Positions 20,073 to 59,833 of a DNA stretch of 64,000 nucleotides are shown one piece after another. Each line of letters starts with the position of its first letter. Within the stretch, counting starts at the first letter, position 1. The translations under genes were made by a program, and so were the position numbers. Source of the DNA: Diphasiastrum complanatum (Eukaryota; Streptophyta; Lycopodiopsida; Lycopodiales; Lycopodiaceae); contig CM055109.1 in the NCBI GenBank assembly GCA_029204225.1, forward strand, positions 32,558,927-32,622,926. The letters run 5' to 3'. The notes below the pieces were generated by a model that did not search any database, was not told where the DNA came from, and saw only the letters and a list, made by a program, of their open reading frames with translations.

Positions 20073-20217
20073 GAGGTCTCTTCAATGATGACGTACGAAA
20101 TACGCTTTACAATTTGTCATCGATAATTAGGTTTGTATATTTTTTAAGCACTTCTATAAATATGTGTTATTTCAATATTTTTATGTGTTAAACAACCTAA
20201 TGTACTATCAATTTTGC

Positions 20218-20937
20218 AGGTGGATTTTCTCAAAAGAAATTAAAAGAAGTGAATTGGATTCCATGAAAATCCAAATGATTGAAATGGCATGTTTGTTCGA
20301 AAGAGATTTTCCAACTTTCTTTTTTGATATACAAGTTTATCTTCTAGTGCATTTGGTCGAAGAAGTATCAATTGCAGGATCTGTGTACACGAGATGGATG
20401 TTTTACCTTGAGCGCTTTATGAAAGTTTTGAAGGGCTTTGTGAGACAACAGGCAAGGCCAGAAGGTAGCATTGCAGAAAGTTGGCTTGTACATGAATCTT
20501 TGTTTTATATCACCGAAATAATCTCACAATTGCATCCTACAAGTCCAAAAATGTGGTGTGAAGAAGAAGATAAACGTGTTAAGGGTGAAGTACCACAAGG
20601 AAATGGTGTGCAAAAGAGACTTTCACTTCAATTAAAAGAGAAAATTGACACGTTCATATTATATAACTGTGGACAAATGGAAAAGTGGATTTTAAGGTAT
20701 GAAAAATCCAAAAAGGAAAGAAACATAACATTGAAACGAAGAAGAAATATCAATCAAAGAAGAAGGAGAGCATTGGAGAATGACGAACCTTTGGAGCCTT
20801 TACCTTCAAAATGCTCTCGTGAATGGGTTTTTGATACGATGCTAAAAGCATTCGAAAACAGAAAAGAAGTGACTGAATTAGAATGCAAATTTGTACGTGG
20901 ATGTGGATGGAAGGTTAGTGTAGTATTATTTTTGTGA
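20218..20937 (+). pseudogene. CACTA TNPD, DUF4218 domain
   Basis: The exon begins after a TTTTGCAG acceptor at 20,219. It encodes RDFPTFFFDIQVYLLVHLV, VYTRWMFYLERFMKVLKGF and VRQQARPEGSIAESWLVHE, which is diagnostic of DUF4218, followed by a lysine/arginine-rich C-terminal part. The frame is open for over 230 codons and ends at a good donor (GGAAGGTTAGTG, about 20,913), so this is the best-preserved exon of the transposase. Confidence 0.9.
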
Positions 20938-27270: not shown

Positions 27271-28913
27271 ATGACAATGTTCCATTTGCATGTTGCTCTT
27301 CCGATGGAATGCACTCCAATTATTAAAAAAAATATGAAAGTTGTAAAGAATGTTGCTGCAATAGTTAGAGAATTGAGAATGAATAATCATATGAATGGTG
27401 AGCTCAATTGCAGCGATTGCAATAATATTTTCCTTGATATTGAAAATGTTCTAAAATACATTATTCGATTCTATAAACTAGACAAACATCAAGTAAATGG
27501 AAAGATCATTATTGTAATAAAATTGGATGAATATGAAATCATCAAGGGTTAGAAGTTGGAACGAGTGAGTGTCACTTTGATGAACAAAATTTTAGATACA
27601 AATCATCGAACGTTTAGTGTTCAATCGGAAAATCACATATGGTGGTTGGCGGCATTCCAGGTATAAATTTCTATTTTCATTTAGAATATCTTTATTTACA
27701 ATTCATATTTTGCCAGTTTTTATTGACATGTCATGCATTACTTGTTTTTTACAGGTCTTGAAAGATGACCATAAAATACTTTCATGGATATTTTCAAGAA
27801 CAAATTATGGCGAAATTATAAGGAGACATTTGGAGGGTGAGAAATTTACAGTCGAAAACCATGGAAGTTTTCAAATTCAATGGCACCTTGCAGGGGATTT
27901 GAAAACATTAAAATGTATGTATAATGTCTCTCATGGGGCAACATCAAAGCATCCATGTCTTTATTGCATGAAGGATTGCTACAATATGAATTTGGGACGA
28001 TCAACAAACACTGGCCCAACACGAGAAGCTGAAGATCCAAATATGAAAAGTGTTCTACCAATTTCATTAAAATATGTTCACAGATGCACATTGCATGCTG
28101 AGGTTCGTATTATTGAAAAACTTATTTACTTGCATATTCTACTAGCATTGAATCAAAAACCGGAGTTTGTGGCTAAAGCAGCAATTAGGAGGTTGAAAAT
28201 AGTTATGTCAAATGCAGGACTACATAAAAGGAATGTCACGATTGAAAAAAGTGACAGACTCTCTGGGAAAAAAGAAAACGTTTCTAATAAGCCATCAATT
28301 GGAGGTGCTAAAGCAAGAAAATTCTTATCCAATCACACATGCAAAGAATCAGGTGTCAGATACGAAATTTGGAGAGAAATTGTTCAAGCCACACGAACAC
28401 TAGAAGGAAGTAATCGAGTGGAAAAGGGACAAGTGTAGACCAACTTAGACAAACTCATAGGTGTTATCAGGAAAGAAAACCTATCATCAGAAGATATGAG
28501 AACTTTGCAAAATCATTGCACCACATTTGTAAAATCTGTACATGATTGTTGGGAAAAAGACAACGTTATTCATTACATGGTGCTAATCTATATCATTATC
28601 TGGTACTTTTTTCATTCAGGCTTATATTTTTTTCTACTGATGTAACTAATCAAAACTATTGTTTGCAGCACATTTTTCTTCATCATGCAACTTATTTTGC
28701 AAAGGAATATGGGAGCTTAAGTATCTGGTCATCACAAGGCATGGAAAAATCTCATTGGCAAGCAAGGGGAGCATTTCATAGAGCGACAAACCATGGAGGA
28801 CACAATTCAAAAAATAAATATTTAGTTCAAGTTTTTCAGTGGTTTTATAGAAGAACACAATTTAGATATCAAGCTAAAAACTTTTGTGCAGATCACAATA
28901 TATATTTCTTTTA
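27271..28913 (+). pseudogene. Unclassified DDE-transposase-like gene, multi-exon
   Basis: The pieces join by good splice sites: exon ending WWLAAFQ with donor at 27,660, acceptor TTTTTACAG at 27,754, and a second intron from about 28,601 to 28,669 (acceptor TTTGCAG). Motifs: NHRTFSVQSENHIWWL, FQIQWHLAGDLKTLKCMYN, then GATSKHPCLYCMKDC, and near the end SIWSSQGMEKSHWQARGAF. From memory, the D-x-K-x-L ... C-x-W/Y-C ... S-x-Q-G-x-E-K layout occurs in a poorly described group of repeat-associated eukaryotic proteins in plants and animals. I infer that D and E are catalytic. Two in-frame stops (27,550-27,552 and 28,436-28,438) interrupt an otherwise continuous protein, so it is a recent relic. The N-terminal segment has a CSDC pair. 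Confidence 0.55.
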
Positions 28914-29848
28914 AAATGGTCATGCAAATTAGAGTACTTTCTATTGTGTTTATGCTTAGAGGATGGTTGGGAATGCACAAGGTCTTGAAAATGAACAAAA
29001 CAAAAACTATCTATTTTCAAAACAGGAGTACTAATAATCTGAGAGAAATTATCAAGATAAGAGATTAAATTATAATGATTCTCATAAACTAGCTTATTGA
29101 TATCGAAGAGAGCAAAAAAAATACTAGCAAAATACTCTAATTTCTCAGATGGAATGTCACTGGCATTAAAAAAATCAAGAAGTTTGTTATCTGAGGACAT
29201 GGAGGAACTAGCCATATTGAACCTGATATCGATTCAACGCGACAAAATTATATCGGTAGAGGACATAACAAGAGTGCTCGTGTTGATCCGATATCGGTAG
29301 GACAAGATTGAAATTTTTCGCGAGAACACGTCAGAAGTGGGTGATATCGATTCAGCACACCTGAACGAATCTGACTATGCAATGTTTGGGAACTCGCACG
29401 TCAATTCAATATCGTGAGGCAAGTGGTGCCCATATTTATAGCCAATTCTTGTTGATCACAGCCATACATTTGTCAAATAACGAATTAAGAAACACAGCCT
29501 ATATCTATCCACCAATCAGAGTGAGACAAATTTGTACCTACGCCGGAATACATTAACTAGTCTATAACTAGATTCAACGAACCATCATTAGGTCTGATCC
29601 TAGAATCAGTACCTCCGCTGAAATATATTAAATATTCAATCAGTAGCCTCCTCGAATAATTATTAAACAAATAATAAACAAATGATAAATGAATATCATT
29701 AAAAAACGTGTACGAGGAGAATTATTACAATCTCTCGTTCTATTTAAGCAGAGTAAAGACGAGATTTTATTCTTTTGAGATAATGTTCATTCAGAACATG
29801 TTCATTAGTCGTTCATAAGGTGCTCCAATATAATTCTTCTGTGTATGA
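28914..29848. other. Spacer with GATATCG-rich sequence
   Basis: No gene is recognised. From about 29,220 on, words such as GATATCGATTCA and GATCCGATATCGG recur. They are also the boundary words of the tandem duplication that follows. Confidence 0.4.
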
Positions 29849-30441: not shown

Positions 30442-31020
30442 GGCGGCTGGAATTTTACGAAATTATAATGATTCGATATAAAAAAGGTCAAATATTTATA
30501 GCTTAATATTGTCAATTTCAGTAATAAATTTTAGATGTGACTATACTTTTGTAGCTTTAAATGTAGATGTGACTATACTTTAGACAAAATTAATTCTGTT
30601 TTATTCGATATCGACTAATCATTTTGATGATAGACGGATATTTAGTTTGATTTGATTGACAAGCCTTGGAGAAATCATTCGTAATTTGAGCCTCGGACAT
30701 CCAACCCACGACCTTTTCAATCATTTCAAATTTTCTCTATATATACTGATAGACGACGCTGAGTTTTTTTTTGCTTAAAGTTCTTACAATTCTCTACATC
30801 CATGCGATAGCGATACAGCGCGCTCGAGACAGACTTCTTATGAACCTCGATTACTCTCGTGCGCCCATCCGCTACCAGCTATTGGTATTGTAGAGCTCAC
30901 GTATTGGTTTGACGTGCTCTACGCTACTTCTCATCCTGGGTTCACCTTCTTCGCGCGCTGATCTGATATTGGTCAGTAATAGCGCGGACCAGGCATACTG
31001 CACGAGGCCACCCTGGTGGA
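30442..31020. other. Spacer upstream of the H3-like ORF
   Basis: No gene is recognised. The frame of the H3-like ORF stays open upstream to 30,967 without another ATG, so a promoter or an earlier exon may lie here. I cannot identify either. Confidence 0.35.
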
Positions 31021-31626
31021 ATGCCAATTTCAGGAGCAGGACATGGAAGTCCACCACCATTACCTCGTCCACCACCACCTCCTCCTAGGCCAAGGGGCAG
31101 AAGAAGAGACCCACCTTGGCTCAAGGATATTCAGAAGCTACAGAAGACAAATAATCTTTTGATTCCGAAAGCTCACATACAGAGATCCATCAGGCAGGTT
31201 ACAAGAAGTCTATCTGCAGATGTGAGATGGACGGTAACGACAATTGAGGCACTGCACACAGCATATGAGGATTTCTAGGTGAAATTTTTTTCTGATACTA
31301 TTGTTGCAGCTGTCCATGCCATGAGGGTGACCATCATGCCCAAGGATTTCAACATTGTGTTCAGGCTTCGGGACACATATGACAAATTTGCAGAATACTT
31401 TAGACCTGCTCTCTCCTCTCCTCCAAAACAAGATTCAGGGAGGACAAAACGAAAGCAAGCTCAACCATCTCGGCTTGTTATTTGTATACAGAGCGGGAGT
31501 GTTTCAAAGAAGAGGAGGTCTCTTGACCCTCCAAATAAAGTGACAAAATTTTCCAAGCCATCTCCTTTGGATGAGATTCTTTCTTCTAGGCATTTTCCTC
31601 CCAATTCTCCTCCTAAGTCTCTTTAG
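31021..31626 (+). pseudogene. Histone-H3-fold protein with atypical tails (one stop)
   Basis: Codons 33-118 align to histone H3 from alphaN to alpha3 without a gap: WLKDIQKLQKTNNLLIPKAH for [20 protein letters not shown], then DVRW in loop 1, EALHTAYEDF for the central alpha2 helix, and HAMRVTIMPKD for HAKRVTIMPKD. Codon 86 is TAG, in the middle of alpha2, yet alignment continues in the same frame, so it looks like a point mutation. The N-terminal tail (codons 1-32) is proline-rich with RGRRR and lacks the ARTKQTARKS tail. After the fold come about 85 residues with KRKQ and KKRR clusters, which H3 does not have. Loop 1 is not lengthened as in most CENP-A proteins. A transposon-captured or fast-evolving H3/CenH3 relative are both possible. 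Confidence 0.6.
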
Positions 31627-32036
31627 ACAATTCTTTTTCTGGTTTATCTGTATTACTTCCGTCAGCCCCTGCACTTGCCTTTGTAAATACTCCTCAATAT
31701 GTATAGTATGACCAATTGTTAAACACGTATCTTAAAGGTTTAGGTCCTCGATACAGTTTTAGGATGCCGAAGACCAATGTTGGTCTCCCCCTTTCTAGTT
31801 TAGATATAGGTGAATCAGAAAGTAGGGATAAATTGCTAGGTGACAATGTAGGAGGTGGGGCCATTCAGTATTGGATGGAGTTTTTCCAGACCCCATTGTT
31901 TATAGATGTAGCATTGTTTTTCCTTCAATTCATGGCTGCATTTGATTTCCCTGATTTCAAAAGTCTACAAGATGATATGCTCCAAAACGTTAGACTGGGG
32001 ACTCCAATTCTCGCGCTACCATACATAACAAAGTAA
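31627..32036 (+). pseudogene. Unrecognised extension after the H3-like ORF
   Basis: After the stop at 31,626, a frame one base off continues as LLPSAPALAFVNTPQYV, a stop, then YDQLLNTYLKGLGPRYSFR and FQTPLFIDVALFFLQFM up to LPYITK at 32,033, followed at once by a consensus donor AAGTAAGTG. The clean donor suggests an exon of the same gene as the H3-like ORF, with a frameshift near 31,620. I recognise no domain. The ending contains a hydrophobic helix-like stretch. Confidence 0.35.
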
Positions 32037-33040: not shown

Positions 33041-33114
33041 CAAACAATTAAATAATGTAGTACTAAAATTTGGAGCATGGGTAAAACAAAATCTTTTGCC
33101 AAATATACTCACTA

Positions 33115-33458
33115 TATCTATTTATCGCATGAGCCAAAATAGCCTCATCGTAGTCCACTGCAATAAAGTCTCTACCAGTGCTAGCGCATGCATACAATGC
33201 CTCCCCCCCCACCCCCCATCCAAGGAAATGATCCACAACCACTCCAGAAGCCCTACAACATAGCTCCACCAGAAACCGAATAAAATGTGGACTCTTCTCC
33301 ATCCCACCACGCAGTGGGCGTGATGTCACCGGATCAGGCAAATATTCAGCTGTGGGAAAGTGGTGCACCCAACAATCTGTTGTGCTTAAAAACAACGACT
33401 CATCAATTACCCATTGGAAACGTGGAAGACGCATCGACACGACATAGAAGATAAACAA
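33115..33458 (-). pseudogene. SAM-dependent DNA methyltransferase-like exon
   Basis: The minus-strand frame reads GGMEKSPHFIRFLVELC and then VVVDHFLGWGVGGEALYACA, STGRDFIAVDYDEAIL. This has the order of the C-terminal part of N6-adenine/N4-cytosine methyltransferases (PF01555 type): a K-P-like segment, motif I with D-x-F-x-G-x-G, then G-R-x-x-I-x-V/I-D/E-x-D for SAM binding. The exon ends at a GTGAGT donor (33,114). Upstream frames carry stops. The catalytic (D/N/S)-P-P-(Y/F) motif is not seen, so it is partial or inactive. Motif I is encoded by a G-rich tract (9 consecutive Gs) prone to slippage. DNA methyltransferase domains are known in some transposable elements such as DIRS-like ones. 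A host gene cannot be excluded. Confidence 0.5.
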
Positions 33459-33549
33459 CCATCATATACACCTGCCAAGCAAAAATCAAGTTATTCAAAA
33501 TTAATATACTCTAAGTATCATGATGTATACAAAACAACCACAAAAAATT

Positions 33550-47079: not shown

Positions 47080-48070
47080 ATGCTTCTTTTATTTTTTTCT
47101 TATTTTTGTTGCCATGTGGACCAATTGAAACCTTAGCTTCGGGGTTCTACGTAACGTAAAATTTTGCAAATATAAATAAAATAAAAACTTTTTAAATATA
47201 TTGTTGTTTCGTCGGGCAGCATGTGGGAATGCTATTGGTTGATGAGGCCTACCCTTCCAGCTCATCACTGCCCAAAGAGACCCAAAAGCAAATGTGAAAA
47301 GATGGCAAAGACACGTGTCATTAGATTATTGAGCCACGTGGAATGTCCGTATTGACAATGATGACCCAATTATGAGGCCACGTGGGCTAAGACACGTGCG
47401 CGAATCCGTTATCGACGCGTGTCATTCTCACATGTGACAAATGTCAGATCAATCATTGTAGATATGGCGCATGTATTTTGACCAATCACATGTCGACACG
47501 TGTTCCTTCGCCACTCCTTCACACGTGCATGTCTTTTTCGGCTCGGATTTTCACGCAAATTTACGATTGCTTTGCCAGACATCGATTTCAAGTGCGCTGC
47601 TTGCTCTCATTACCTTTCGTTGACTATTTTGCGCCTGGATCTGATACTGCATCGTCCGGTATTGCATTCGAGCGCGCTTTGCATCCCTTTTCTTTTCTGC
47701 TCTGTGTTCTTGCACTCGAATCCGATACTCCACCTTCAAATATCTCTCTCGAGCGCACATTGTCTTGACGTGCTTGCCTGACCTGCGGTTTGTGCCTGAG
47801 AGCGATATTTGGAACTTTGGTTCTGTTATTTTTGTTTAAAATGTCTAATTTTGAATCCAGTTTGCTTTTTTTTTTTTAATGAATTTGGTATTACTGATAG
47901 GTTGGACTATTTCAAATCCCTTTTTTTCTTTTTTTCTTTTAATTCTACCTTCTATAACTGAGGGCCCTGGTGTGGAGGCATTTTCTGAAATATATCTCAG
48001 ATTTAATTCCCTGCTCAGTACTCTGTTATTCAGATCTCAGAATAAGGACATGATTCATTATTAGGACCTG
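47080..48070 (+). other. Non-retroelement segment inside element B, with clustered CACGTG-type motifs
   Basis: Between gag and the RT remains lies about 1 kb that does not look like copia sequence. At 47,325-47,530 it has many ACGTG/CACGTG words: GACACGTGTCA, GCCACGTGGAA, GGCCACGTGGGC, GACACGTGCG, CGACACGTGTTC and CACACGTGCA. These are plant G-box/ABRE-type cores, bound by bZIP and bHLH factors. After it a TC-rich region with a ~72-bp diverged direct repeat (about 47,598-47,765) leads to T-rich tracts. It resembles captured promoter and leader DNA. No gene product is recognised. Confidence 0.45.
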
Positions 48071-49568
48071 GTGGCACTCGACAAGCATATCTACAAAGCT
48101 AAGCTTGACAGAATGTTTACCAAGTTACATAATGATTTTAAATCTGTAGATGAGTGCCCAATTCATAATAAAAAATGTAGATTTGTTGATTTTCAGTCTT
48201 TTTTTTTTTTTTTTGTGTTAAATATTTTTGACGATTCGGAGACTATGCCTTCCACTTCTAAAGCAGTTTCTTCTAGTGGTACAAAGTCTGAAAAGTCAAA
48301 GATTGTAGATATAGATACTTTTTTTATTGATACGAGTGTTAATTTAGATGATTGTTCTGATTTTGATCCTGCTCGAAATAGGGCTACTTTTATAGGCCCT
48401 AGAACACCCACTACCCTTTCTCCTTCTGATAAATCTCTGATCACTTTGCCTACTTATAATATAGATAATAATTCCTTTTTGACAATATCGGATATATCGG
48501 ATCGATTTGCAAACAATTCAGCTGACTGTAATGTTTATTCAAAGCATATAGGCATCAATTCAGTTCACATAGCTCTTTACGTAGATGATGCATTTATTCT
48601 GTCTAATGACACTACTGCACACTACTAAGAGTGATCCATCAAAGGAATTTGACATGACTGATTTAGGAGCTGTCCATTCTTTGCTAGGAATTCACATTAC
48701 TAGAAATAGGCCTTAGAAAAAAATCTATCTTAGCCAGCAGACATATCTAAAATGCATTTTAGAAAAATTTCATATGTTTGATTGCAAACCCATTGATACT
48801 CCAATGGATCCAAGTATAATATTGACTATACCTACTTGTGCTAATTCTGATAGTGAAGTACTCGACATAGTGAAGTACCCTTATCATTCACTAATAGGAT
48901 CTTTAATGTATACAATGTTGTGTACTAGACCAAATTTAGCATACATTATTAGCACGTTAAGTCAATTCATGTCTAATCTTAGGATCTCTCATTGGAAAGC
49001 ATTAAAGAGAGTGATGAGATATATTCAGGAAAGATTAGATCACATCTTATGTTATGATGGAAATGCTATCAACCCACTCGTCCTGCGAGGCTATTCCAAC
49101 TCAGATTGGGGAGGAACAATTTCTACTAAAAAATCTACCTCCGGGTTCTGTTTCTATCTGGCAAGGGGACCGATTTTGTGGAACTCAAGGAAACAGAAAC
49201 CAGTTGCGCTTTCTTTGACATAGGCAGAGTACATCGCAGCATACCATGCTTCAAAAGAAGCTATGTGGATCAAGTTATTACTTCACGACTTACATCACAC
49301 TCAATTCAATGCTACTACCATTCTGTGTGACAACTTGAGTTGTATTTCACTGTCACTGAATCCCAAATTTTATGGCAAATCCAAGCACATAGAAAAAATC
49401 CAGTATCATTTCATTCGGGAGAAAGTTTTCTCAGGGCGAGTGATCCTTCAATACTGCTCCACAACAGAAATGACCGCAGACATCTTCACCAAAGCGCTTC
49501 CCAGGATCAAGCACGAGAAGTTCTTCAACATGCTGAACCTGACGATGATACCAAGGCACCAACCGTGA
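48071..49568 (+). pseudogene. Copia element B reverse transcriptase C-terminus and RNase H
   Basis: The frame starting at 48,071 has a non-copia beginning (MALDKHIYKAKLDRMF, serine/threonine-rich middle) and then NSVHIALYVDDAFILSND with the YVDD catalytic motif of RT. After a stop and shift the order is EFDMTDLGAVHSLLGIHI, YLKCILEKFHMFDCKPIDTP, PYHSLIGSLMYTM, CTRPNLAYIISTLSQFM, then RNase H: GYSNSDWGGTISTKKSTSG, AEYIAAYHASKEAMWIK, CDNLSCISLSLNP, SKHIEKIQYHFIREKV and TADIFTKALP. Several stops break it. Integrase and the RT N-terminus are missing, replaced by the foreign 47.1-48.2-kb segment. The purine tract CTTAAGAGGGAC precedes the LTR at 49,582. Confidence 0.9.
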
Positions 49569-58440: not shown

Positions 58441-59833
58441 GCCACTCAAAACCACCCCTGCACAAACCCTTCACCAAATTTAGCTTCCGAACGCAACCAA
58501 ATGAGATGACGATCCAGTATATCCAGAGCTGCAAAAGAGAGGATTGTCATTAAAATGTCATGTTCGAGAGTTAATTAAACATCGTGTAGACAACAAGGAG
58601 GAGTATGTCATTGAGAGTTTTGGTAGTTCAAATACAGGTTTTGTTTATCACGTCTCGAAACCAAATAGAAACTATTTTTGTAGTGCAAGTAACAGTCTCA
58701 TTACGTTGTCTTCATTGTCGGGCAATGCAAATTTTTAGCTCTTTTTTTATGCTTTGGAATATCAGATGAACTATATCCGATCAGGATGGACTGCATTCTT
58801 TGCTTGATAATGCATTTTCAAACTTTGTGTTTCAATGTGGCATCAAATCTCGGTTTGTCATTTTCATTGGCAAATAGTACACTTTTAAAGATTGTGTAAA
58901 CTTTTTAGGTTCCCTACCCTAAAATTATATTTGATTTTCTTCAAGGATATGGTTGCTGTAAATCCGAACATGTTGCTGCTGCATTGAGTTCAAATTATTT
59001 TGCTCATAACTCTAAGCATGGCTATAAAAATAGAACGATGATAAACTTGCTAAACTCGTGAATTGTTACTTGCAGATTGTCTAACCCCTATTTCACTCAA
59101 CTCTTTAAAGACTCATTTTTGTGCGCAGTCCATGGGAAGAGAGTTACTTTATTCTCCAAGGATATATTATTAGCACAAAGCTTGAGGAGATATTATTCTC
59201 AAAGATCATGTACTATACCAAATTTTGATTTAATACATATGAAATTATTTTTGATTCACAATCTTTTATTGATTTTGTACTATTCGAAACATATGCAAGC
59301 ATAATACAACAACTTAACCCATGAGCTTTCAAAAACTCCATGCATGTAACAATAATCAAGACAAAGGCTTTAATACTATCAAGCCACATATCATTCATAC
59401 CAAAGCAAGGTTTCTAATTCGAAATTTGACAAAACCATCCCCTAAGTCTACTTGACCATTGCCAATTCCAAAGCCTTTTAAAATTGATCAAACAATCTTG
59501 TCAAGAAAGACTGACACACAACTCCAAAGGATGTGACTATCTTGCAAGTAAGCATTATGCGAGAACAATAACATCACTCAAGAAACAATAACATATTAAA
59601 TTCTTCCACTCCTAACATAGTAGCACTAGTATTATATGAAACAAAATAAATATCGTAGCCAAAAAGGTGAGTAACTTGCATTTGAATGATGTCTACTCCT
59701 GCACATGCATCCACTTTCTGAACATTAATTTCTTCTTTTCCATGATCCCTACGTGAAATTTTTTTCGTTCAGCACTCTCAAGGTATAGTAGATTGCTTTT
59801 TGTAATATACTCTCTCCAAGGCAAAGTCCATTT
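58441..59833. other. Spacer, nothing recognised
   Basis: No supported gene. The short open frame at 58,544-58,738 shows no family features. Confidence 0.35.

What the first reader, a model, noticed from the sequence alone, without database searches (positions are those of the whole stretch)
31021..31626. Histone-H3-fold protein with proline-rich N-tail and long basic C-tail in a transposon-rich block
Codons 33-118 align gap-free with H3 from alphaN through alpha3, including LLI-x-K, Q-R, D-x-R-(F/W) and RVTIMPKD. The canonical H3 tail is absent, and an ~85-residue basic tail follows. The only lesion inside the fold is one TAG within alpha2 with homology continuing in frame, so decay is recent. 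H3 variants with such tails are not standard plant histones. It could be a captured H3 used by a mobile element, or a rapidly evolving centromeric-type relative.
Basis: partly seen in the sequence, partly recalled or inferred. Interest (0 to 1): 0.88.

Follow-up and report, generated by a model that had tools for sequence, protein, structure and literature searches.

The report
Plant transposon carrying its own histone
A dead copy of a histone H3-like gene in this plant window belongs to a large family of jumping DNA elements that carry their own altered H3, which keeps the very tip of the H3 tail but lacks the lysine that plants use to silence such elements.

Summary
In detail: window 31114-31401 encodes an H3 fold (Pfam Histone 70.9 bits, 1.5e-19). 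It is not a stray H3 fragment. It is a decayed copy of a gene carried by TIR transposons that are highly repeated in this 1.74-Gb plant genome: TIR ends of two families matched 1,881 and 1,244 times, reversed controls 0. Of 20 fetched copies, the H3-like gene (H3L) lies beside partner gene X in 17, Y in 15 and a putative transposase in 14; relics of transposase and X precede it in the window. One copy is an open 412-residue frame. Between two subfamilies the H3 fold has dN/dS about 0.08, the lowest of the pieces tested. My best mechanism, inferred, is an element-encoded H3 that cannot be silenced through H3K9 methylation. Fungal hAT elements with captured H3 are the nearest precedent; this transposase has no Pfam match.

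The parts
27421..28914 (+). Relic of the element's putative transposase gene (Tp), recognised in stretches 27421-27663, 27707-28435, 28379-28588 and 28666-28911; one in-frame stop in the first and one in the third, the second and fourth open
   Evidence: tblastn of family A and B Tp frames: 60% identity over 85 aa, 61% over 217 aa, 50% over 62 aa; stops counted; no Pfam family reaching its cut-off for the 273-aa frame
28877..29233 (-). Relic of partner gene X (overlaps the end of the Tp relic on the other strand)
   Evidence: tblastn of the window frame against X of L021/L022/L024/L025, best E 3.5e-9, 29% over 85 aa
30982..31020 (+). Remnant of the H3 N-terminal tip, ARTRHTARGHPGG, in frame with the fold
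   Evidence: 8/13 identical to H3 1-13; unique among 127,924 window 13-mers; 0 of 100,000 shuffles
31021..31113 (+).
   Evidence: translation
31114..31401 (+). H3 histone fold of H3L, interrupted by one TAG at 31276-31278
   Evidence: PF00125 70.9 bits, E 1.5e-19; PDB H3 matches; clade with family-E copies L082-L084, 96/95
31402..31626 (+). C-terminal tail frame of H3L, ending in a stop
   Evidence: translation; weak similarity to family-E tails, E 8e-4 (L087) and 0.002 (L086)
31707..32036 (+). 109-codon open frame out of frame with H3L, perhaps the rest of its C-terminal domain (unproven)
   Evidence: open frame; no match by BLASTP to the family B tail or by tblastn to L086/L087
33063..33461 (-). 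ORF with weak N6/N4 DNA methylase similarity, repeated in the genome; membership in the element uncertain
   Evidence: PF01555 E 0.0017, below cut-off; 520 first-look candidates genome-wide; of 3 other such loci fetched, one (L078) has a Tp match beside it

Best explanation
What it is (about 0.95): the dead H3L gene of one old copy (family E) of a set of multigene TIR DNA transposons. The fuller copies of families A and B carry a putative DDE-type transposase (Tp), two genes of unknown kind (X, Y) and H3L, an H3-fold protein with the N-terminal tip of H3, a rebuilt tail and, in families B and E, a long C-terminal extension. How it works (about 0.35, inferred): H3L is made during the element's active phase, pairs with host H4 and enters nucleosomes, perhaps brought to element DNA through its long extensions. 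Its tail keeps residues 1-8 (R2, often K4, T6, R8) but has no K9, so nucleosomes holding it cannot take H3K9 methylation, the mark that feeds DNA methylation of plant transposons, while K4 remains open to marks linked with activity. H3L would thus be an anti-silencing factor. Shown: gene, element, repetition, selection, tip kept, K9 lost. Inferred: expression, nucleosome entry, targeting, anti-silencing.
For: H3 fold; TIRs at both ends of family A and B elements and 1,881 + 1,244 TIR matches against 0 for reversed patterns (these include deleted derivatives). H3L beside X in 17, Y in 15 and Tp in 14 of 20 copies (copies chosen for high score and mostly long open frames). Selection between B subfamilies: H3 fold dN 0.034, dS 0.427, ratio 0.08; X 0.18-0.39, H3L tail 0.35, Tp 0.44-0.61, Y 0.67; non-coding stretches read as codons 1.87 and 0.71 (at most 4 against 3 rows; 0.09 with 7 against 7 copies). 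Tip: MARTKQTAR with 7-9 of 9 matches in 11 A copies, residue 9 D or G; MDRRKQTRR-type in 13 B copies, residue 9 D (G in one); MARTESTAR-A (C, L025); MARTKQTAR-E (D, L028); MARMKQTTR-L (E, L086); ARTRHTAR-G (window): K9 in 0 of 28 copies (of 41 scanned) and not in the window; K4 in 11 of 11 A and 12 of 13 B copies. 194 A-type tips genome-wide, 57 exact, control 0. Residues 69, 113 and 129 kept in 8 of 8 aligned H3L sequences, 83, 116 and 123 in 7 of 8; that these serve DNA contact, the H3-H3' bundle and chaperones is recalled.
Against: No expression, protein or chromatin data. K9 may have been lost once in a common ancestor, so its absence in all families need not be repeated selection. R63 (a DNA contact, recalled) is lost in 8 of 8, and part of alphaN varies, so nucleosome entry is not assured. 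K4 is replaced in the window (R), L025 (E) and L047 (M). dS in the fold is far above that of the rest of the element, so the low ratio may partly reflect recombination between modules. No consistent target-site duplication: equal 3-bp flanks in 1 of 10 end pairs. Tp has no Pfam match, and its single-sequence model was useless (pLDDT 35).
Confidence: 0.5

Rival explanations
1. H3L is a structural part of the transposition machinery: an H3/H4-like half-nucleosome or DNA-wrapping subunit that holds the element ends or guides insertion into chromatin, with the extensions binding Tp, X or Y.
For: Beside X in 17 and near Tp in 14 of 20 fetched copies; fold more constrained than Tp; extensions differ between families, as adaptor domains might.
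Against: Does not explain why the distant tip ARTKQTAR stays intact in A and D while the rest of the tail is rebuilt.
Confidence: 0.25
2. H3L derives from the centromeric histone CENH3 and steers the element into, or lets it survive in, centromeric chromatin.
For: H3L lies beside plant CENH3 in the tree, 74/91; an LIPxAPF-like stretch in most H3L and, in family E, RW and RVTLM resemble recalled plant CENH3; best PDB match of L084 is fission-yeast CENP-A, 72.4 against 70.2 bits for the next protein; of the first 100 listed family B ends, all on contig C1, 28 lie at 65.0-66.7 Mb and 21 at 95.0-98.6 Mb.
Against: H3L next to canonical H3 not rejected, p-AU 0.071; best PDB matches of the A and B folds, L083 and the window are H3 or H3 variants, not CENP-A; the window tip ARTRHTARGHPGG has TAR...GG as canonical H3 does; the crowding may be segmental duplication; no host CENH3 was found for comparison; comparison CENH3 rows are recalled.
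Confidence: 0.15
3. H3L is a decoy: it soaks up readers, writers or chaperones of H3 (a histone mimic through its tip, or an H4 sink through its fold) without entering element chromatin.
For: Perfect ARTKQTAR tip on a protein of 412 residues with residues of the H3-H3' bundle and chaperone site kept (assignment recalled).
Against: A decoy for the tip alone would not need a fold at dN/dS 0.08.
Confidence: 0.15
4. Passive transduplication: a host H3 gene was swept into a transposon and copied without being used, as in the RIP-inactivated fungal hAT copies.
For: Many listed copies carry stops; fungal precedents (PMC6710886, abstract and Results part 1 of 2 read; PMC3538342, passages read). Differences private to single copies are 59% (A), 70% (B1) and 49% (B2) replacement against 72-74% expected without selection, so single copies decay freely or nearly so in A and B1.
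Against: dN/dS 0.08 in the fold between subfamilies; five diverged families keep the fold together with X, the tip or both; saturated synonymous against 24% replacement change between the window and L083.
Confidence: 0.05

Closest known systems
H3-carrying hAT transposons of fungi (H3L of Pyrenophora tritici-repentis, PMC3538342; Pseudocercospora fijiensis and relatives, PMC6710886)
   Same: TIR DNA transposon with transposase, an H3-like gene with altered tail, and in P. [quoted passage not shown] amplified to tens or hundreds of copies
   Different: There the transposase is hAT, with 8-bp target duplications in P. fijiensis; P. fijiensis copies were inactivated by RIP, while ESTs of H3L were seen in P. 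tritici-repentis. Here no hAT or other Pfam domain, no 8-bp duplication, several old families, selection on the fold, H3 tip kept with K9 lost
VANDAL elements with VANC anti-silencing proteins of Arabidopsis (PMC10398659, abstract and outline read)
   Same: Plant transposon whose own accessory protein counters host silencing (here only a hypothesis)
   Different: VANC binds element noncoding regions and induces loss of silent marks; H3L is a histone and would act as the chromatin itself. No sequence relation looked for
Plant centromeric histone CENH3
   Same: Divergent H3 fold and rebuilt tail; LIPxAPF-like stretch in most H3L (comparison sequences recalled)
   Different: Repeated, in a transposon, with partner genes; C-terminal extension in families B and E; tree placement undecided

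Membership tests
Histone H3 | H3-type histone fold | tested here: met
   PF00125 1.5e-19 for the window copy; H3 and H3-variant chains best in PDB (for L084 CENP-A is best)
Histone H3 | N-terminal tip ARTKQTAR | tested here: met
   9/9 with initiator Met in L009, L010, L011, L013, L014, L028; 5-8 of 9 in 22 further copies of 41 scanned; degenerate in the window
Histone H3 | K9 and the rest of the modified tail | tested here: not met
   K9 in 0 of 28 readable copies and not in the window; later tail not alignable by eye
Centromeric histone CENH3 | groups with CENH3 in a tree | tested here: inconclusive
   74/91 for H3L + plant CENH3; alternative p-AU 0.071; recalled references
Centromeric histone CENH3 | longer loop 1 | tested here: inconclusive
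   Longer by 4 in L081/L082/L084/L085, by 1 in B, not in A, window or L083 (my count on the sequences)
Centromeric histone CENH3 | located at centromeres | not testable with these tools
   no centromere map or ChIP data
TIR DNA transposon | terminal inverted repeats shared by copies at unrelated sites | tested here: met
   about 30-34 bp TIRs starting CATTAG in families A and B, matched genome-wide; ends of the window's own family E were not determined
TIR DNA transposon | target-site duplication | tested here: not met
   equal 3-bp flanks in 1 of 10 end pairs; 8 of the 10 pairs were matched only by nearness and orientation of their ends
TIR DNA transposon | recognised transposase | tested here: inconclusive
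   Tp conserved between families with KLD, HLAxDLK...CxYCM and QGMEKSH motifs but no Pfam match; DDE reading is inference
hAT transposon with H3 (fungal type) | hAT domain and 8-bp duplication | tested here: not met
   no hAT domain in any gene piece scanned; no 8-bp duplication in 10 pairs

The most novel reading that the evidence does not exclude
A lineage of plant DNA transposons carries its own histone H3 that keeps the H3 tip (residues 1-8) but lacks K9, and uses it to build element chromatin that the H3K9-methylation silencing loop cannot mark: anti-silencing by replacing the histone instead of removing the mark.
Probability: 0.3. Interest if true: 0.95.

Novelty: new variant of a known kind. 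Interest (0 to 1): 0.78.

Why it matters
Transposons with a captured H3 are known from a few fungi. Here several old families in one plant genome keep the histone under strong selection with recurring partner genes and a tail that is H3 up to residue 8 and something else from residue 9 on. If the protein works in chromatin, it would be a natural K9-less H3 test of how H3K9 methylation silences transposons, and a case of a selfish element rewriting its host's chromatin alphabet.

Tried and rejected
Protein database search with the window H3L: 1,681 candidates, none with E <= 1e-3, not even ordinary H3, so I take that collection to be of no use for eukaryotic histones and did not repeat it. Viral contigs: no relative of the A-type fold or of the window Tp. 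Rfam: nothing at gathering threshold in the window. Structure predictions of the window Tp and H3L without alignment were of very low confidence (pLDDT 35 and 43) and were not searched for folds. The first sight that the 31707-32036 frame matches the family B tail was not borne out. L036, first thought a host CENH3 because of its score, is an A-type H3L. No host CENH3 was found with a recalled CENH3 query among the 150 scored of 5,569 candidates (introns may hide it). Genome counts of the B and E tips were not obtained. In one search a fourth Tp piece was read in a frame that one search shows not to be the coding one (the QGMEKSH frame is another); it is left out of the ratios. One further A end pair (L065/L066) was cut too short to read, and L075/L076 face outward; both were dropped from the 10 end pairs. 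Literature searches that showed no plant case: in full listings; two searches gave 12,208 and 8,713 papers of which I saw 20 and 10 titles (PMC open-licence library only).

Full report
Observation. The + frame at 31021-31626 carries an H3 fold broken by a single TAG. Read with X at the stop it matches PF00125 at 70.9 bits, E 1.5e-19, against a cut-off of 26.4, and many PDB H3 chains (best 4.6e-17). So the histone reading is beyond chance. Upstream in the same frame lies ARTRHTARGHPGG (30982-31020), 8 of 13 residues identical to H3 1-13, unique in the window and never reached in 100,000 shuffles. From A1 to the start of the fold it is about as long as the canonical H3 tail (my count: 47 against 48 residues).

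Genome context. The window's genome has 1.745 Gb in 5,176 contigs. A six-frame search with PF00125 gave 6,325 first-look candidates, of which the best 150 were scored: 13 places at about 164-165 bits (ordinary H3), nearly all the rest at 95-110 bits, with open frames from about 95 to 417 residues, many with one or two stops. The candidate numbers are loose. I fetched 20 of these places with about 10 kb each, chosen mostly for long open frames, so the sample favours intact copies.

The element. All-against-all comparison split them into family A (10 loci), family B (8) and diverged ones (L025, L028, window). Family B copies share a block of about 9.3 kb with inverted ends CATTAGAGGA(G/A)TTCTCAATATC..., family A copies have CATTAGGGCCCTTTTTGGACTC.... 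Genome-wide, these ends with at most one mismatch occur 1,881 (28 bases) and 1,244 (32 bases) times; the patterns read backwards occur 0 times. These counts include deleted derivatives. Equal 3-bp flanks were seen in 1 of 10 end pairs, so no target duplication is established. Besides H3L the blocks hold Tp, X and Y. Of 20 loci, X is near H3L in 17 (not L015, L018, L023), Y in 15, Tp in 14 (in L018 and L027 not in the usual place or direction). In the window Tp (27421-28911, +) and X (28877-29233, -) relics precede H3L; no Y was found there. Tp, X and Y pieces have no Pfam family reaching its cut-off. Tp families keep a KLD, an HLAxDLK...CxYCM and a QGMEKSH motif; I read these as a DDE-type transposase, by inference only.

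H3L families. A: tip MARTKQTAR, a long acidic, Q- and P-rich tail, H3 fold at the end; L009 is an open frame of 412 residues, in other copies the frame is broken by a stop or frameshift. B: tip MDRRKQTRR, short tail, fold, then about 200 residues (open frames of about 330). E (with the window): L086 begins MARMKQTTR, then fold and a long C-terminal part. C (L025) MARTESTAR; D (L028) MARTKQTAR, its tip lying in the same frame but with stops between it and the fold. The residue after R8, K9 in H3, is D or G in A, D (once G) in B, A in L025, E in D, L in E, G in the window. I scanned 41 fetched copies (many short ones do not reach the tip); 28 have a tip of at least 5 of 9 matches, and residue 9 is lysine in 0 of 28 and not in the window (L024's second, C-type tip is the most altered, with no recognisable R8). 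K4 is kept in 11 of 11 A and 12 of 13 B copies, in L024's second, D and E; it is E in L025, M in L047 and R in the window. A 45-base A-type tip occurs 194 times with up to 3 mismatches, 57 exact, control 0. Counts for B and E tips could not be had.

Selection. B splits into two subfamilies. Between their per-piece consensus (4 against 3 rows at most, fewer in some pieces) the H3 fold has dN 0.034, dS 0.427 (ratio 0.08), X 0.18-0.39, the H3L tail 0.35, Tp 0.44-0.61 in three pieces, Y 0.67; two non-coding stretches read as codons gave 1.87 and 0.71. With 7 against 7 copies the fold gives 0.036/0.403. dS is much higher in the fold than elsewhere, so the element may be a mosaic; the ratio for Y is no different from the lower control. 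Within family A (21 copies) mean pN/pS is 0.44, within B (14) 0.25. Differences private to single copies are 59% (A), 70% (B1) and 49% (B2) replacement against 72-74% expected without selection: near neutral in B1, less so in A and B2, in a sample chosen for good HMM scores. Left out: L024's B copy (a stop), L017 and L055 (short), and the C, D and window rows. Family E pairs with unsaturated dS give ratios 0.16-0.50. The window against L083: pN 0.244, pS 0.913, saturated.

Origin. In an 18-row tree all 9 H3L rows fall together (87/85), beside three plant CENH3 rows (74/91); the window joins E copies firmly (96/95). Holding H3L with canonical H3 costs 10.6 log units, p-AU 0.071. The plant CENH3 and human CENP-A rows are from memory. 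One capture of an H3-type histone, followed by long diversification inside elements, is the simplest reading; whether from CENH3 or H3 stays open.

Mechanism. H3L keeps residues 69, 113 and 129 of H3 in 8 of 8 aligned sequences and 83, 116 and 123 in 7 of 8, while 63 is changed in all. From general knowledge these serve DNA contact, the H3-H3' bundle and chaperone binding, so pairing with H4 is plausible. The likeness to the H3 tail ends between R8 and K9 in the families other than the window's, whose copy still shows GG at 12-13. In plants H3K9me2 and CMT-type DNA methylation silence transposons (general knowledge). I therefore propose that H3L makes element chromatin that cannot be marked at K9. 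Arabidopsis VANDAL elements show that plant transposons can carry anti-silencing proteins (PMC10398659, abstract and outline read). Nothing here shows expression or chromatin entry.

Known relatives. Fungal hAT elements carry captured H3 genes: P. tritici-repentis H3L, 26 copies, with insertions in the tail and ESTs (PMC3538342, passages read), and P. fijiensis, 784 H3-like copies, inactivated by RIP (PMC6710886, abstract and first part of the Results read). The present elements lack hAT domains and 8-bp duplications. I found no plant case in the listings (18 and 65 seen only in their top rows).

Noticed in passing
47957-48283 (+) and 59089-59190 (+): Two further fragments of the same element kind: a piece of X and a short A-type H3L fold piece (73.5% identity over 34 aa with the A19 frame).
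   Followed up: partly
33063-33461 (-): N6/N4-methylase-like ORF (E 0.0017, below cut-off) downstream of H3L; repeated in the genome (520 first-look candidates) and beside a Tp match in L078, one of 3 other loci.
   Followed up: partly
20164-20937 (+): ORF with DUF4218 (PF13960, 1.6e-26), which from memory is typical of plant CACTA elements.
   Followed up: no
G000 contig C1, 65.0-66.7 Mb and 95.0-98.6 Mb: Of the first 100 listed family B ends, all on C1, 28 and 21 lie in these two stretches, with runs of one strand; 5 of 35 listed A ends of C1 lie at 65.0-66.2 Mb. Could be a centromere or segmental amplification.
   Followed up: no
family A and B element ends (L022+L029, L013+L034, L056-L063, L067-L074): No consistent target-site duplication although the inverted ends are well kept; two left flanks of different families (L058, L071) both end in agtgttgtat.
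   Followed up: partly
family B elements, gene by gene: Synonymous divergence between subfamilies is 0.43 in the H3 fold but 0.05-0.19 in the other genes, which hints at recombination of the H3 module.
   Followed up: no
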